Position numbers and translations under genes: made by a program. Shown here piece by piece: positions 5,173-63,810 of a stretch of 64,000 nt of DNA (position 1 is its first letter; each line of letters begins with the position of its first letter). The notes below the pieces were generated by a model. It had not been told where the DNA came from. It searched no databases and saw only the letters and a list, made by a program, of their open reading frames with translations. The stretch is from Paenibacillus durus ATCC 35681 (GTDB lineage Bacteria; Bacillota; Bacilli; Paenibacillales; Paenibacillaceae), in contig NZ_CP011114.1 in the NCBI RefSeq assembly GCF_000993825.1, forward strand, positions 2,418,001-2,482,000. Reading direction: 5' to 3'.

Positions 5173-5925
5173 ATGCAATTGTCCCTGTACAAAGTAAAAG
5201 GAAAGATGATTAAGCACCAGATCCTGCTAAACCAACCGGAAATTCGTCCCTATTTGCCCGAAACCCATTGGTTCTCGGCAGACAGAGCCGTGCAAATGTT
5301 GAAGAAGTACCCGACCATCTTTATCAAACCCAACGGCGGCAGCGGCGGGGCAGGTATTATCCGTGTCCGGAAAACCGTTAACGGGTATGAAACGGCTCAC
5401 GACCGAAGCCGCCAAAGGCTCGGCTCCCCTTCATTGCACAGGACTCTCCGCTCTTACGAGCGGTCGCCGAAACAATACATTGTGCAGAGGGGCCTTGACC
5501 TCGCCTCCTATAAGGGCAAGTTGTTCGATCTCCGCATCTATCTGCAGAAGCCGGCAGGCCAGTGGATGGTTTCCGGCACTGTGGCTAGGGTCGCTGCTCC
5601 GCACCGCTTTGTGACAAATCACACAAGAGGAGGTCATGCCGCATCGCTTCCCAGGGTTCTTTTGCCCATCTACGGAAACAATCGAAGTAAAGTGCGCCAT
5701 AGCATGAATACGATCAAGAAGCTTTCTCTTATCATAGCCAAGACGCTGAATAAGTCGTTCTCGGACCTTCGCGAATTGGGGATTGATTTTGGAATCGACA
5801 AAAAAGGCCGAATCTGGTTTATCGAAGCCAACTCCCGACCTGCCCACCATTTATTTACCCAGCTCCCCGACAAGACCATGCTGCGGCGGATTCGCAGAAA
5901 CAAACGCCTGATTTTTGTCGAATAA
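5173..5925 (+). CDS. YheC/YheD-family ATP-grasp protein (first of two in the AEP operon)
   Basis: ATP-grasp fold protein of 250 residues, related to Bacillus spore-coat-associated YheC/YheD. The ATP-binding lysine and Gly-rich loop are at 52-62 (FIKPNGGSGGAG). FDLRIYLQ (118-125) provides the conserved Asp/Arg, and the metal site is GIDFGIDKKGRIWFIEANSRP (Asp205, Glu218, Asn220), so the active site looks intact. ATP-grasp enzymes join a carboxylate to an amine through an acyl phosphate. An in-frame ATG occurs at 5098, but 5173 aligns with the paralogue at 9171. It is the first gene of the operon, 66 bases before aepX, suggesting a role in using AEP. The substrate is not known. Confidence 0.8.
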   Translation: MQLSLYKVKGKMIKHQILLNQPEIRPYLPETHWFSADRAVQMLKKYPTIFIKPNGGSGGAGIIRVRKTVNGYETAHDRSRQRLGSPSLHRTLRSYERSPKQYIVQRGLDLASYKGKLFDLRIYLQKPAGQWMVSGTVARVAAPHRFVTNHTRGGHAASLPRVLLPIYGNNRSKVRHSMNTIKKLSLIIAKTLNKSFSDLRELGIDFGIDKKGRIWFIEANSRPAHHLFTQLPDKTMLRRIRRNKRLIFVE

Positions 5926-5991
5926 GAAGAACGTTTCCCTAGCAAGTCCTCTTATATCGTCTTCATCAGGTCTAAAGAAAGGAAGCGTGCA

Positions 5992-6891
5992 ATGAACAAA
6001 TCCACCCGATTGAAGCAGTTGATCAATTCACCAAAAACGGAGTACTTAATGGAAGCCCATAACGGTTTGTCGGCAAAGATTGTGGAAGAAGCCGGCTTTC
6101 AAGGAATCTGGGCGAGCGGCCTCACCATCTCAGCGGCCATGGGTGTCCGTGACAACAACGAAGCTTCCTGGACGCAGGTGCTGGATGTGCTGGAATTTAT
6201 GAGCGACGCGACGTCCATTCCCATCCTGCTCGATGGAGACACAGGCTACGGAAACTTCAATAATGCCCGGCGTCTTGTTAAAAAATTGGAGCAGCGCCAG
6301 ATCGCGGGCGTATGCATCGAAGATAAGCTGTTTCCGAAAACGAACTCTTTTATCAACAGCGAGACTCAGCCGCTTGCAGACATCGACGAGTTTTGCGGCA
6401 AGATCAAAGCCATGAAGGATACGCAGCAGGATGAGGATTTTACGGTGGTCGCGAGAGTGGAAGCCTTCATCGCCGGCTGGGGTCTGAAGGAAGCCCTGAA
6501 ACGGGCCGAAGCATACCGGCAAGCAGGCGCCGACGCCATCCTGATGCACAGCAAAAAGGCGGATATCTCGGAGATCGAGGCTTTCATGAAAGCCTGGAAC
6601 GGCAGACATCCGGTGGTCGTGGTGCCCACTAAGTATTATGCCACGCCAACGGAACGCTTTCAGGAGCTTGGGATCAGCACCGTCATCTGGGCCAACCACA
6701 ACTTGCGCGCCTCGGTTGAGGCCATGCAGGGAATCACGCATAAGATCTTCCGCGAAGAAAGCATCATGGATGTGGAAAACCGCGTAGCAGGCGTTAACGA
6801 GATTTTCCGGCTGCAGCGAGCCGATGAGCTTCAGGCGGCCGAAGGCAAATACCTCCCTTCCCCGGGCAAGCCGGAGGGTGATCGGCCATGA
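5992..6891 (+). CDS. aepX: Phosphoenolpyruvate phosphomutase
   Basis: Isomerises phosphoenolpyruvate to phosphonopyruvate, forming the C-P bond that starts most phosphonate pathways. The 299-residue protein has the mutase signature [10 protein letters not shown] (110-119), which separates true mutases from isocitrate-lyase-like relatives. The metal-binding [10 protein letters not shown] is at 81-90 and GVRDNNEAS at 51-59. [13 protein letters not shown] and VVVPTKYY are also typical. The start is supported by GGAAG upstream. Its end overlaps the aepY start by four bases (ATGA), implying translational coupling. The equilibrium favours PEP, so the adjacent decarboxylase is needed to drive flux. 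Confidence 0.96.
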
Positions 6892-8018
6892 TCCCTACCG
6901 GACAATTCGGAGCGGAATTGCACCGGCTTGGATTTCACTTTTATACCGGGGTGCCGTGTTCCTACTTGAAGAATTTGATCAACTATGCCATCAACGACTG
7001 CGAATATATCGGGGCGGCCAATGAGGGAGACGCGGTGGCCATTGCGGCCGGCGCTTACCTGGGCGGGAAAAAGCCCGTTGTCCTCATGCAAAACTCGGGG
7101 CTCGGCAACGCCGTTTCGCCTTTGACGTCCCTCCTGTACCCGTTTCGCATCCCCCTCCTCGGTTTTGTCAGCCTGCGGGGCGAACCCGGCGTTCCCGACG
7201 AACCCCAGCATGAGCTGATGGGACAGATTACGCCGCAGATGCTGGAGCTGATGCAGGTGGAATGGCAATACCTGTCTTCAGAGATGGCTGAAGCCAAGCA
7301 ACAACTGCTGCAAGCTGTTCGGGTCACGGAACAGAACCGGCCTTTTTTCTTTGTCGTTCGCAAGGGAACGTTTGAACCGGAAGAGCTGCGCAGCCAGACT
7401 CCGCTCCTGGCGGCGAATCAAACCGTTCGAGTCAAGCACAAGAGAGACCAGCTTCCCACCCGGTACGAAGCGCTGTCTCTCCTCCATGCCCAAAGAGACA
7501 GCCATACTGTCTATCTTGCCACAACCGGCAAGACGGGCAGAGAGCTGTACGATATCGCGGACCATGCCGGCAATTTTTACATGGTAGGCTCCATGGGATG
7601 CATCAGTTCGTTCGGGCTCGGGTTGGCCTTGACCCAAACCAAGAAAGACATTGTCGCCATCGACGGAGACGGCTCCTTGCTCATGCGCATGGGCGCTCTG
7701 TCAACAATCGGCTGCTACGGTCCTTCCAATTTGCTGCACATTCTGCTGGACAACAACGCTCATGATTCAACCGGAGGTCAGAAAACCGTTTCGCATAATC
7801 TTGATTTCGTGAAAATCGCAGCCGCCAGCGGCTATGCCCACTCCATTTATGTCCACCAGTTGAGCGAGCTGGAGGCCGTTTTGAGCGAATGGAAGGAAGC
7901 GAAAAAGCTGACCTTCCTCCATATGAGAATCGCCGCCGGCTCCAAGGAGCCGCTCGGCCGGCCCCACATCCGGCCCTTTGAAGTGAAAGAGCGGTTAGTG
8001 GAATTTCTAGGAAAATAG
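6888..8018 (+). CDS. aepY: Phosphonopyruvate decarboxylase
   Basis: Thiamine-diphosphate-dependent enzyme that irreversibly converts phosphonopyruvate to phosphonoacetaldehyde, pulling the aepX reaction forward. The protein has 376 residues. The cofactor-activating glutamate is in ANEGDAVA (Glu46). The ThDP/Mg motif runs from GDGS (260-263) to NNAHDSTGG (289-297). [11 protein letters not shown] at the N-terminus is typical of the family. A GGAGGG site in the end of aepX precedes the start by about ten bases, and the start overlaps the aepX stop. Sulfopyruvate decarboxylase is a relative, but the aepX/phnW context settles the call. Confidence 0.95.
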
Positions 8019-8040
8019 CGAAAAAAAGGAGGGTCATGTT

Positions 8041-9168
8041 ATGGGGACCGTAAAAAGAACGATTTTGCTCAACCCCGGTCCTGCAACGACGACAGACACC
8101 GTGAAATATGCCCAGATCGTACCGGATATTTGTCCCCGTGAGCAAGAATTTGGAAGATTGATGGAAGACATTTCTGTGGAGTTGACCCGCCTGGTTGCCG
8201 ATGACGCCCGTTACGCCACCGTTCTGTTTGGCGGTTCGGGAACTGCCGCGGTGGAATCGATCCTGTCTTCCGTCGCCTCGGACGATGCGGTGGTCATCAT
8301 CAATAACGGCGCTTACGGCAGGCGGATGTGCGAGATCTCGGCTGCTTACGGATTGAATTACCTGGAATTCAAAAGCTCTCCCGAGCAAGCGGTCGATGTG
8401 CCTGCGCTTGAAGCTGCGATCCGCAATTCCCGGCAGCCCGTATCTCACGTCGCCGTCGTTCACAATGAAACGACAACCGGCCTGTTAACCGACATCGAGG
8501 CGATAGGAAAGCTATGCGCGAAATACCGGCTGGACCTGATCGTGGACGCGATGAGTTCCTTCGGAGCCATCCCCATCCAAATGGAATCGATGAATATCCG
8601 TTATTTGGCGGCCAGCTCCAACAAAAATCTTCAGGGTATGCCGGGAATCTCTTTTGTCGTGGCGGATAAAAGCAAGCTGGAATCCCTGAAATCCGCGAAG
8701 CCGCGGAACTATTACCTGAATTTGCCTGCGCAATACGAGCATTTTGTGAAAACCCGGCAAATGCGATTTACCCCGCCGGTGCAAACCCTGTACGCCCTCA
8801 AACAGGCCATCGAAGAATTGAAGGGGGAAGGTTTGGCCGAAAGGTACGCAAGGTACGCAAAATCCTGGGAAACGCTGATTCATGGCATGTCCCTGCGGGG
8901 ACTGAAACATCTGGTTGCGGAAAAGGATCATTCCCGAACCGTGACTTCCTTCCTTGAGCCGGACTGCGAAGGCTTTGATTTTCAAGCGATGCATGATTTT
9001 TTTTACGCCCGGGGCTTTACCATCTATCCCGGCAAAATCGAGGATTTACGCACTTTTCGCATCGCGAATATCGGAGACATCAGCTTCAAGGATATCGAAG
9101 CCTTTTTGACGCTGCTGGATGAGTACCTGTTAAGCATCGGTTATTCTATGCGAAAGGCAGTTGACTAA
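8041..9168 (+). CDS. phnW: 2-aminoethylphosphonate:pyruvate aminotransferase
   Basis: PLP-dependent class V aminotransferase of 375 residues interconverting phosphonoacetaldehyde and 2-aminoethylphosphonate. PLP lysine is Lys195 in ASSNKNLQGMPG, and the cofactor Asp is in LIVDAMSSFG (Asp169). The N-terminus LLNPGPATTTDTVK and HNETTTG (141-147) are characteristic. In degradation operons phnW sits with phnX; here there is no phnX and it follows aepX-aepY, so the direction is most likely synthesis. AAAGGAGGG lies eight bases upstream of the ATG. It ends two bases before the next gene. Confidence 0.95.
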   Translation: MGTVKRTILLNPGPATTTDTVKYAQIVPDICPREQEFGRLMEDISVELTRLVADDARYATVLFGGSGTAAVESILSSVASDDAVVIINNGAYGRRMCEISAAYGLNYLEFKSSPEQAVDVPALEAAIRNSRQPVSHVAVVHNETTTGLLTDIEAIGKLCAKYRLDLIVDAMSSFGAIPIQMESMNIRYLAASSNKNLQGMPGISFVVADKSKLESLKSAKPRNYYLNLPAQYEHFVKTRQMRFTPPVQTLYALKQAIEELKGEGLAERYARYAKSWETLIHGMSLRGLKHLVAEKDHSRTVTSFLEPDCEGFDFQAMHDFFYARGFTIYPGKIEDLRTFRIANIGDISFKDIEAFLTLLDEYLLSIGYSMRKAVD

Positions 9169-9170
9169 TC

Positions 9171-9914
9171 ATGCCATTACCGAACAGCAAGAACAAGTTT
9201 CTGAAATACCGGTTTATGAATAGCTCCCCGTATTTACGGCCTTATATGCCGGAGACGAGATGGATGACGGCTTTATCGTTTCAGCAGATGTTAACCAAAT
9301 ACAAGAAAGTGATTGTGAAACCCGTAGGCGGCAGCCGGGGACAGGGGGTCTTCCAGGTTTCGGCGCTTGGAAACCATCTGTACGAAGTACACATCGAGAA
9401 CAGAAAATACAAAGTGCGAGGAAAGCGGCAAGCTTTTGCATTGATAAAAAGGCAGGTCGGAGCCCGCGGCTATATGGTTCAACGCTGCATCTCCCGAGCG
9501 GACATCAACGGGCGTCCATTTGATATGCGGGTTATCGTTCAGCGCAAAACAAATTCCCCGGATTGGGTCGTTACCGCGAAAGTGGCAAAAGTGGCAGGCA
9601 GCGGTTATATCGTCTCCAATATCGAGCGAAGCAAGGGGACGATTCTGCCGGTCGGAACCGCCCTCCGGCATTCTTCCTTGAAAGGGCACTCCCCACACCT
9701 CCTGCAAAAGAATCTGGACCGGGTTGCCCTGCGGTCTACCTTCAAGTTAAAGGAATTATTCCCGGAGCATCGGATATACGGCTTTGATCTGGCGCTGGAT
9801 CGCCATGGCCGCGTCTGGATCATTGAAGGGAACCTCTTCCCGTCAAGGTCCCATTTCCGGAAGCTGGAGGATAAAACGATGCTTCGCCGGATCAATGCGT
9901 ATAAATTGGGATAG
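9171..9914 (+). CDS. YheC/YheD-family ATP-grasp protein (second of two in the AEP operon)
   Basis: A 247-residue paralogue of the ATP-grasp protein that opens the operon. Shared features are an N-terminal YLRPYMPETRW motif, Lys50 with a Gly-rich loop (IVKPVGGSRGQG), FDMRVIVQ (117-124), and the metal site YGFDLALDRHGRVWIIEGN with Asp206, Glu219 and Asn221. All catalytic positions appear present. The two copies are clearly diverged, so they probably act on different substrates or in successive steps. Its ATG is only two bases after the phnW stop, making translational coupling likely. A coat-associated role is the family precedent; ligation of AEP is inferred from context only. Confidence 0.8.
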   Translation: MPLPNSKNKFLKYRFMNSSPYLRPYMPETRWMTALSFQQMLTKYKKVIVKPVGGSRGQGVFQVSALGNHLYEVHIENRKYKVRGKRQAFALIKRQVGARGYMVQRCISRADINGRPFDMRVIVQRKTNSPDWVVTAKVAKVAGSGYIVSNIERSKGTILPVGTALRHSSLKGHSPHLLQKNLDRVALRSTFKLKELFPEHRIYGFDLALDRHGRVWIIEGNLFPSRSHFRKLEDKTMLRRINAYKLG

Positions 9915-9925
9915 AGAGATTGAAA

Positions 9926-9966
9926 AAGCCGCCGTTTGGATCGCGAATCGTGACCAAAGGCGGCTT
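9926..9966. terminator. Terminator between AEP operon and proS (probably bidirectional)
   Basis: AAGCCGCC plus TTTGG on the left pairs with CCAAAGGCGGCTT on the right, with one bulged base. The T-run is strongest on the minus strand (AAAAA at 9923-9927 on the plus strand), serving proS. GAATTTT follows on the plus strand, so it may also end the AEP operon. Confidence 0.75.
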
Positions 9967-62305: not shown

Positions 62306-63685
62306 TCAGGGCGCTTGTTCTCCGCACCATAACCTGCGGACATTGCGGGTTTCGTCCCAGCTTCGGCCGGCGTCGATGTGGCGCAGCAGCGGCTCGACGG
62401 CATCCGCCGCCGCAGCGTAGCCGGCCAGTGCCCGGAGCTGCGCCGTCAGCGGCGCGAACGCGGCGCGCAGCGGCGGCTTGTCGCCGCTGTAATACGCAGC
62501 GTGAAGGTCCTCGCGGTCAAGCGGGCGCAGCGGCAGTTCCTCGTAATGGCTCACGATTAGGTGAGCCAGCGTGACCGCGCCCCGGGCGACGACCGGGGAT
62601 ACGAGGAAGCTCGGCAGGGTCCGGTACTCGAAGCCGCCATGCGGCTGGAGCCGGAAATCGCCGAGCACGCCGTAGCGGGGGCGCCGGCCTCCGGCCCGGG
62701 CGTCCTCCAGCAGTGCGATGGGCAGCGCGAGATAGTTGTCGAGCGCGCGCAGCAGCGGCGCCGTCAGCGTGACGCCGCTGAAGTGCAAATGCCCGCCGAG
62801 GGCCCAGCCCCTCAGCGGCATGCCGCCCGCCCGCCAGCTTATGCTGCGGTCGGCAATGAGCCGGTCCGCCTCCATCGCGGCGGACCTCAGCTGCGCCAGC
62901 AGCGCGCGCGGCTCCCCGCGCGGCCGGGGGCGCAGCTCCGCCACCGGGAACGCGCCGCGCGTTCCCGGCGGTCCGGCGTCGCAGCCGGCGACGCCGTCCG
63001 TAGGCAGGTACCGCGACGCGGGCACGACGCGGCCGGTGGACTCCCGGAGCAGGAGGAACTCCGGGTCCATGCCCATGACGAGGTCAGGCCGCCCGGGCCG
63101 TTCCCTCTGTAGTGCCCGCTGCAGCGCGGCAGCCGCCGAGCGGTAAGGCTCGGGCATCACGCCGCCGGCAGAAAGCGCCAGCGGTGTGATGCCCTCTACC
63201 GTATACCGCCGCTCTCCCTGGGCCGCAAGCAGCACTTCTCCGCTGTCAAGCCCCAGACAGTACAGCGTTTTGGCCGCAAGGCTGCCCAGCCGCTTCGGCA
63301 GGCTTCCGCGCTCTAGAAAGGGAAGCGCGGCGTATCCAGCCGGGTCTTCTGCACGCACGCGGCCTGCAGAGGAGCGCCGGCGCGGCCGGGCCGTAAGCGC
63401 CGCCGCCGCGGGCTTCATTCCCAGCCCCGCGCCCAAAGGCGTGATTTCCAGCGGGGTCAGATTGTAGACCTTGACCCGGTAGCGCTGGCGGTAATGCTCC
63501 TTCGCAGAAGCCCCCGCCCTGCCGAAGCCCCGATCCCTGCCGCCTGTCTCCGCAGACTGGCTGCCGGCTTCGGGCGACCGGGTTCCGCCTCCGATGACAA
63601 GGGAAGCTGAAATCCCGCTGCGCCGAAGCCGCCGCTCTCTGCCTTCGGGCGTCAAAGCATGATATATCTCGGACCCGTCCTTCAT
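62306..63685 (-). CDS. PhiEco32-type COOH-NH2 ligase (putative amidoligase)
   Basis: A 459-residue protein. Residues ~205-400 match the phage phiEco32-like COOH-NH2 ligase type 2 family, a glutamine-synthetase-like fold: VMGMDPEFLLL, DGVAGCDAG, VAELRPRP, GWALGGHLHFSGV, YLALPIALLED and PHGGFEYRTLPSFLVSP, with Glu/His metal residues. The N-terminal ~200 residues are variable, Arg/Gly-rich and unassigned. ATG at 63685 is preferred because GGGAGG lies eight bases upstream; a longer start near 63720 is possible. GC content is visibly higher than its neighbours. Family members are thought to form peptide-like bonds; substrate unknown. Confidence 0.78.
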   Translation of the reverse strand: MKDGSEIYHALTPEGRERRLRRSGISASLVIGGGTRSPEAGSQSAETGGRDRGFGRAGASAKEHYRQRYRVKVYNLTPLEITPLGAGLGMKPAAAALTARPRRRSSAGRVRAEDPAGYAALPFLERGSLPKRLGSLAAKTLYCLGLDSGEVLLAAQGERRYTVEGITPLALSAGGVMPEPYRSAAAALQRALQRERPGRPDLVMGMDPEFLLLRESTGRVVPASRYLPTDGVAGCDAGPPGTRGAFPVAELRPRPRGEPRALLAQLRSAAMEADRLIADRSISWRAGGMPLRGWALGGHLHFSGVTLTAPLLRALDNYLALPIALLEDARAGGRRPRYGVLGDFRLQPHGGFEYRTLPSFLVSPVVARGAVTLAHLIVSHYEELPLRPLDREDLHAAYYSGDKPPLRAAFAPLTAQLRALAGYAAAADAVEPLLRHIDAGRSWDETRNVRRLWCGEQAP

Positions 63686-63785
63686 AGTTAAGCCCTCCCG
63701 AAGCGCAAGGTTCATATCCATCACTTTCCGGCGGGCTGCGGCAGACCATACGGAAGGCGCCTCCTCTACCTGCCTAAAAAAAAGC

Positions 63786-63810
63786 AAAAAAAGGAGGGCA
63801 TCCGCCCTCT
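63786..63810 (-). terminator. Terminator of the partial gene at the window end
   Basis: GAGGGC and GCCCTC pair around a four-base loop (63794-63809). The minus strand continues CTTTTTTT. Confidence 0.88.

What the first reader, a model, noticed from the sequence alone, without database searches (positions are those of the whole stretch)
5173..9914. AEP biosynthesis operon bracketed by two distinct ATP-grasp ligase-like proteins
The sequence shows ATP-grasp / aepX / aepY / phnW / ATP-grasp in one orientation, with a 66-base gap, a 4-base overlap, a 22-base gap and a 2-base gap. aepX has the EDK-x5-NS signature, aepY the ThDP motif and phnW its PLP lysine, so 2-aminoethylphosphonate can be made. 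phnX, C-P lyase, a CMP-AEP cytidylyltransferase, glycosyltransferases and an exporter are all absent between the terminators. Both ATP-grasp proteins keep the Lys, Asp, Glu and Asn of an active site and belong to the YheC/YheD group linked to spore coats. Inference: one or both ligate AEP to a carboxylate, giving a phosphonate-modified peptide or spore-surface component. This would be a phosphonate pathway without a cytidylyl step.
Basis: partly seen in the sequence, partly recalled or inferred. Interest (0 to 1): 0.87.

Follow-up and report, generated by a model that had tools for sequence, protein, structure and literature searches.

The report
Phosphonate operon with dedicated amide ligases
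A five-gene bacterial operon makes the unusual phosphorus compound 2-aminoethylphosphonate and carries two enzymes of its own that probably link it by an amide bond to an amino acid, peptide or protein, a fate for this compound that does without the usual nucleotide-activation step.

Summary
In detail: ATP-grasp (AG1), aepX, aepY, phnW, ATP-grasp (AG2), with the stated gaps. The association is real and reaches far beyond the strain. The exact order is in 18 of 80 named aepX loci (17 Paenibacillaceae, 1 Thermoactinomycetaceae). YheCD ATP-grasp genes lie near 45 of 49 named aepX loci without a nucleotidyltransferase. In a class-wide sample not chosen by aepX (398 genomes), all 20 genomes with a strong AG2 match have aepY, 17 of them at one phnW length from it; 12 of 13 genomes with an AG1-like match have aepY, 8 of them unlinked. 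Sister clusters add other amide-ligase folds and a KamA radical SAM enzyme. Both ATP-grasps keep their catalytic residues and model confidently like RimK, ArgX and TTLL6. No PntC-like enzyme, phosphonatase or PhnJ was recognised in this genome. Best reading: AG1 and AG2 make amides, with AEP as the amine, so AEP caps a peptide or protein. The acceptor is unknown. The spore-surface part stays open: the promoter scan was inconclusive, and in related strains the aepX gene is transcribed during growth.

The parts
5173..5925 (+). AG1, YheCD-type ATP-grasp protein (250 aa), predicted carboxylate-amine ligase
5992..6891 (+). aepX, phosphoenolpyruvate mutase
   Evidence: TIGR02320 over cut-off; EDK-x5-NS; only PEP mutase match in the genome
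6888..8018 (+). aepY, phosphonopyruvate decarboxylase
   Evidence: TIGR03297 over cut-off; ThDP motif
8041..9168 (+). phnW, 2-aminoethylphosphonate aminotransferase
   Evidence: TIGR03301 over cut-off; PLP lysine in SNK
9171..9914 (+). AG2, YheCD-type ATP-grasp protein (247 aa), predicted carboxylate-amine ligase, the most constant partner of aepXY-phnW
9926..9966 (+). Inverted repeat after the operon, possible terminator
   Evidence: Read from the sequence; not listed by the scan, whose loop limit is 8 bases

Best explanation
The operon makes 2-aminoethylphosphonate (phosphoenolpyruvate to phosphonopyruvate to phosphonoacetaldehyde to AEP) and joins it by amide bonds. AG1 and AG2 are carboxylate-amine ligases of the ATP-grasp fold: ATP turns a carboxylate into an acyl phosphate and an amine attacks it. 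AEP has no carboxylate, so where it is a substrate it can only be the amine, which makes it the end cap of an amino acid, a peptide or a protein carboxylate. Most likely one enzyme, AG2 as the most constant partner, adds AEP, and the other prepares or extends the acceptor, as two ATP-grasp ligases share the work in phosphonoalamide synthesis. Shown: genes, intact catalytic residues, predicted fold, co-inheritance. Inferred: the amide chemistry, which ligase takes AEP, the acceptor and where the product goes.
For: Gene order kept in 18 of 80 named loci and in 8 of 36 family regions with an AG1-like gene upstream (two more, L059 and L071, have a long YheCD there). Class sample: 20 of 20 genomes with AG2 matches of 340 bits or more have aepY, against 31 of 398 overall. 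AG1-like: 12 of 13 genomes at 1e-75 have aepY, 8 of the 12 unlinked, which speaks for function rather than chance neighbourhood. 45 of 49 named aepX loci without a nucleotidyltransferase have a YheCD within about 6 kb. Other amide-ligase folds recur: COOH-NH2 ligase fused to YheCD and Mur ligase. Confident models like RimK, ArgX, TTLL6 and DcsG. No phosphonatase over cut-off, no PhnJ, no clear PntC in this genome.
Against: No substrate, product or activity is known. Ten hybrid clusters have both nucleotidyltransferase domains and a YheCD, so a YheCD does not always replace the nucleotidyl route. Two aepX-aepY-phnW clusters in the family sample have neither within the fetched 20 kb (L065, L072), and of 31 aepY genomes in the class sample 11 have no AG2 match of 340 bits. 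None of 42 other sampled genomes of the same genus has aepY over the cut-off. ATP-grasp folds also include kinases and other chemistry. The 340-bit threshold was set after seeing the list, kinship was not corrected, and some profile rows come from genomes in the samples.
Confidence: 0.66

Rival explanations
1. AEP goes onto a surface glycan or lipid by enzymes encoded elsewhere; AG1 and AG2 modify that surface or a coat protein without using AEP.
For: Most bacterial AEP capacity is said to go to cell surfaces through nucleotidyl activation (PMC6697681, abstract passage and Discussion). Hybrid clusters hold nucleotidyltransferase and YheCD together. YheC and YheD are sporulation genes in B. subtilis (PMC517825 passages).
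Against: No clear PntC-like enzyme in this genome, though weak NTP_transf_3 relatives exist. AG2 tracks aepY.
Confidence: 0.2
2. AEP is attached to carboxylates of a protein (a protein modification), not to a small peptide.
For: Closest solved folds include enzymes that act on protein carboxylates: RimK, ArgX with LysW, TTLL6, TTL. No conserved small precursor gene was seen in the five-gene unit.
Against: D-Ala-D-Ala ligase and D-cycloserine synthetase match about as well; shared fold shows no substrate.
Confidence: 0.25
3. The operon breaks down phosphonates, with PhnW working backwards.
For: PhnW is catabolic in many bacteria (established knowledge); in P. polymyxa, ppd and pepM were described as degradation genes (PMC4209062 passages).
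Against: PEP mutase and decarboxylase are the synthetic pair; no phosphonatase over cut-off and no PhnJ in the genome. Other routes were not searched.
Confidence: 0.03

Closest known systems
[quoted passage not shown]
   Same: Phosphonate cluster with two ATP-grasp ligases; one makes dipeptides, one joins the phosphonate
   Different: There the phosphonate is phosphonoalanine, which has a carboxylate; here it is AEP, which has none. The ligases here are YheCD-type. Product unknown
PntC nucleotidyl-activation pathways for AEP (PMC6697681, passages and Discussion seen)
   Same: Same AEP-making enzymes
   Different: No nucleotidyltransferase in the operon and no clear one in the genome; ATP-grasp genes instead
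YheC/YheD spore proteins of Bacillus subtilis (PMC517825 and PMC7911427, passages seen)
   Same: Pfam family PF14398
   Different: AG1 and AG2 are short, single-domain and apart from this genome's other nine YheCDs in the tree; YheD's function is stated as unknown
RimK, ArgX/LysX, TTL/TTLL and Ddl ATP-grasp ligases
   Different: Identity about 10-25% in these alignments; substrates here unknown

Membership tests
AEP biosynthesis (PepM, Ppd, PhnW) | All three enzymes over equivalog cut-offs, with catalytic motifs | tested here: met
AEP biosynthesis (PepM, Ppd, PhnW) | AEP present in the cell | not testable with these tools
   needs 31P NMR
PntC-type nucleotidyl activation | Nucleotidyltransferase fused to or near aepX | tested here: not met
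   none in the operon; genome matches only weakly alike
YheCD ATP-grasp family (PF14398) | Score over the curated cut-off | tested here: met
   206.3 and 169.2 bits, cut-off 26.8
YheC/YheD spore-coat proteins | Sporulation (sigmaE or sigmaK) promoter | tested here: inconclusive
   28 type A/B operons: sigmaE mean z 0.01, sigmaK mean z 0.57 with 6 of 28 over 1.5; window best matches 11 of 15 and 8 of 10, not compared with shuffles (motifs recalled)
YheC/YheD spore-coat proteins | Location on the spore | not testable with these tools
   needs experiment
Phosphonopeptide pathways with ATP-grasp ligases | Two ATP-grasp ligases coded with the phosphonate genes, catalytic residues kept | tested here: met
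Phosphonopeptide pathways with ATP-grasp ligases | Amide-bond formation with the phosphonate | not testable with these tools
   needs enzyme assay
Phosphonate catabolism | phnX or phnJ in the genome | tested here: not met
   best TIGR01422 53 bits of 220; no PhnJ

The most novel reading that the evidence does not exclude
A widespread, unrecognised class of AEP conjugates in Bacillota: YheCD ligases, together with beta-amino acids from KamA-type enzymes or dioxygenase-modified amino acids in some lineages and with Mur or COOH-NH2 ligases in others, build AEP-capped peptides, polymers or proteins for the cell or spore surface. This would give the YheCD family its first chemistry and explain many AEP clusters that lack nucleotidyltransferases.
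Probability: 0.35. Interest if true: 0.9.

Novelty: new variant of a known kind. Interest (0 to 1): 0.77.

Why it matters
[quoted passage not shown] This operon ties the two questions together: two short enzymes of the YheCD family stand beside the genes for their likely substrate, so both questions become testable with two purified proteins and AEP. If true, it adds an amide-linked fate for AEP in Bacillota.

Tried and rejected
Rejected or left open. Catabolic operon: no phosphonatase over cut-off, no PhnJ. Hidden PntC: 10 NTP_transf_3 places compared. KamA partner in this genome: three TIGR00238 matches, one over the cut-off, and that one is 30% identical to the cluster KamA and sits among NRPS-type genes. 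A conserved sixth gene: among 47 loci without nucleotidyltransferase by gene calls, no non-core family reached more than 4 genera and those look general, apart from a Mur-ligase family in 3 genera. Phosphonate pocket: in 24 AG2 rows H228 and R153 are invariant; H228 is not found in the other six groups compared, but basic residues at R153 are common elsewhere, so no conclusion. Sporulation promoters: inconclusive for this type; seven of nine hybrid operons scored over 1.5 z for sigmaK, on related sequences. Papers: searches on this question were made; none of the listings shown linked YheCD to AEP (lists were capped in several). The 2009 amidoligase survey by Iyer and co-workers (recalled) is not held and may mention such neighbourhoods; the 2013 pepM survey and the Bacillus velezensis phosphonopeptide paper are not held either. 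Three protein-database searches and one structure search were left unused.

Full report
Check. aepX, aepY and phnW pass NCBIfam equivalog cut-offs and carry their motifs. Both flanking proteins are PF14398 YheCD ATP-grasps. The genome (5.58 Mb, one contig) has 11 YheCD matches: these two, five in tandem and four singles.

Conservation in the family. Of 295 sampled genomes of the same family, 32 have aepY over the cut-off; of the 42 others in the same genus none has. I fetched 36 regions: 33 places over the cut-off outside this genome and three weaker ones. A YheCD lies within 8 kb of aepY in 25 of 36. The full order with an AG1-like gene upstream is in 8; L059 and L071 have a long KamA-linked YheCD in that place. 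The 11 without a YheCD are six clusters with nucleotidyltransferase-type fusions (L043, L061, L064, L069, L070, L073), L041, two distant clusters (L074, L076), and two free aepX-aepY-phnW clusters that speak against my reading (L065, L072).

Conservation by name. A scan of named genomes with an aepX alignment kept the best 80 of 562 confirmed stretches, themselves a capped list. The full order is in 18 of 80: 17 Paenibacillaceae (Paenibacillus, Gorillibacterium) and one Thermoactinomycetaceae (Thermoflavimicrobium); in one of them, L091, aepY is broken. Twelve more have aepX-aepY-phnW-AG2. Of 49 loci without a nucleotidyltransferase domain 45 have a YheCD within about 6 kb; of 31 with one, 10 do, and these are the hybrid clusters below (Fisher p 2.7e-8, but related species count separately, P. 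tyrfis three times). The four exceptions are L099 (a short YheCD-like piece by gene calling), L136, L152 and L154; the last lies near a contig end.

Test not chosen by aepX. I searched a class-wide sample of 398 genomes with the AG2 profile and with the aepY family. All 20 genomes with an AG2 match of 340 bits or more have aepY, against 31 of 398 (29 over the family cut-off; G490's aepY is partial); the hypergeometric figure is 3e-26, ignoring kinship and with the threshold set after seeing the list. In 17 the gap between aepY and AG2 is 1168-1209 bp, one phnW length; G332 has 1357 bp, G347 36 bp, and in G555 two AG2 genes lie on another contig. The next matches (320 bits and below) are mostly in genomes without aepY. 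Eleven aepY genomes have no such AG2 match. In the family sample 20 AG2 matches of 347 bits or more lie in 18 genomes: 17 have aepY over the cut-off and G019 a partial one; in G031 only an aepX remnant was found. Three lone AG2-like genes of 286-310 bits lie in genomes without aepY over the cut-off and without AEP genes in the 16 kb around them. The AG1 profile finds 13 genomes at 1e-75, 12 with aepY (not G586); in 8 of the 12 the gene is far from aepY or on another contig, and the weaker ones may be a sister clade. G008 keeps a second AG1-AG2 pair apart from its AEP cluster. Some profile rows come from genomes in the samples, so their scores are high by construction; the informative part is that no genome without aepY scored as high.

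Tree. In an 85-row tree of YheCD domains (76 rows from AEP loci, 9 from elsewhere in this genome) the AG2 clade (25 rows, support 99) and the AG1 clade (9 rows, support 99) hold none of the nine (quick method, SH-aLRT only).

Sister clusters. In 9 of 80 named loci a KamA-family radical SAM gene lies within reach; two KamA proteins run against NCBIfam pass TIGR00238 but no specific aminomutase equivalog. These clusters also hold a long YheCD, with Ser/Arg/Asn/Gly-rich tails in four examples read (L059, L063, L066, L071), and up to three further YheCDs. In ten loci a Mur ligase stands between a YheCD gene and aepX; in L133, the one run against Pfam, the order is COOH-NH2 ligase fused to YheCD, Mur ligase, aepX with extra domain, aepY, NTP_transf_3-phnW, Nudix, and five others have a YheCD protein of like size, 864-908 aa. 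A Mur ligase also lies near aepX in L094, L105, L125, L136 and L144. In four loci a TauD-family gene adjoins an AG1-like gene; three were run against Pfam. Recurrent amide-ligase folds beside AEP genes are what an amide product predicts.

Mechanism. AEP has an amine and a phosphonate but no carboxylate. If an amide ligase of this fold uses it, AEP must be the attacking amine and ends the chain. That follows from the chemistry of the fold (established knowledge) and is not shown here. The phosphonoalamide pathway, with one dipeptide ligase and one that adds the phosphonate (PMC11867202, abstract and passages), is the nearest worked example.

Spore link. In B. subtilis yheC and yheD are in the sigmaE regulon and raised by SpoIIID (PMC517825 passages). 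For 28 type A/B operons sigmaE shows no excess and sigmaK little (mean z 0.57, 6 of 28 over 1.5); seven of nine hybrid operons are over 1.5 for sigmaK, on related sequences. In Paenibacillus cave strains the PEP mutase gene was transcribed in all phases tested, as were all clusters tested (PMC7829367 section 18), and its primers fit the aepX of this cluster type. I leave the destination open.

Novelty. ATP-grasp ligases in phosphonate pathways are known, so this is a variant of a known kind. The AEP-YheCD link did not appear in the listings of the searches named under Tried and rejected, but one likely source, the 2009 amidoligase survey, could not be read.

Noticed in passing
window 62306-63787 (-): The genome's single PF14395 COOH-NH2 ligase gene (493 aa), beside mutS- and mutL-like genes; the same fold is fused to a YheCD in the hybrid AEP cluster of L133.
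   Followed up: partly
L157 6708-13063 (-): Five YheCD genes in tandem elsewhere in the window's genome, 370-455 aa.
   Followed up: partly
L160 8423-9286 (-): A YheCD gene between two DNA gyrase-like genes near the replication origin; a 2014 paper title cited in PMC13164025 and PMC5627462 describes a YheCD-like sequence there (paper itself not seen).
   Followed up: no
L193, L194, L195, L199 beside AG1-like genes: TauD-family dioxygenase genes adjoin AG1-like YheCD genes in four genomes that also have aepY, away from the aepXY genes.
   Followed up: partly
L059 2918-4387, L071 6876-8477, L063 7939-9264, L066 8119-9459: Long KamA-linked YheCD proteins end in Ser/Arg/Asn/Gly-rich repeats, purpose unexplained.
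   Followed up: no
L067, L075, L091: Decayed copies: an aepX remnant of 42 aa, a truncated aepX with partial aepY, and an aepY found in three pieces.
   Followed up: no
L186 386-11171 (-): NRPS-type cluster with a KamA-like protein in the window's genome (other names judged by eye).
   Followed up: no
upstream of hybrid operons L100, L101, L133, L135, L137, L141, L128: sigmaK-like matches over 1.5 z in seven of nine hybrid operons, which hints at late sporulation expression for that variant.
   Followed up: no
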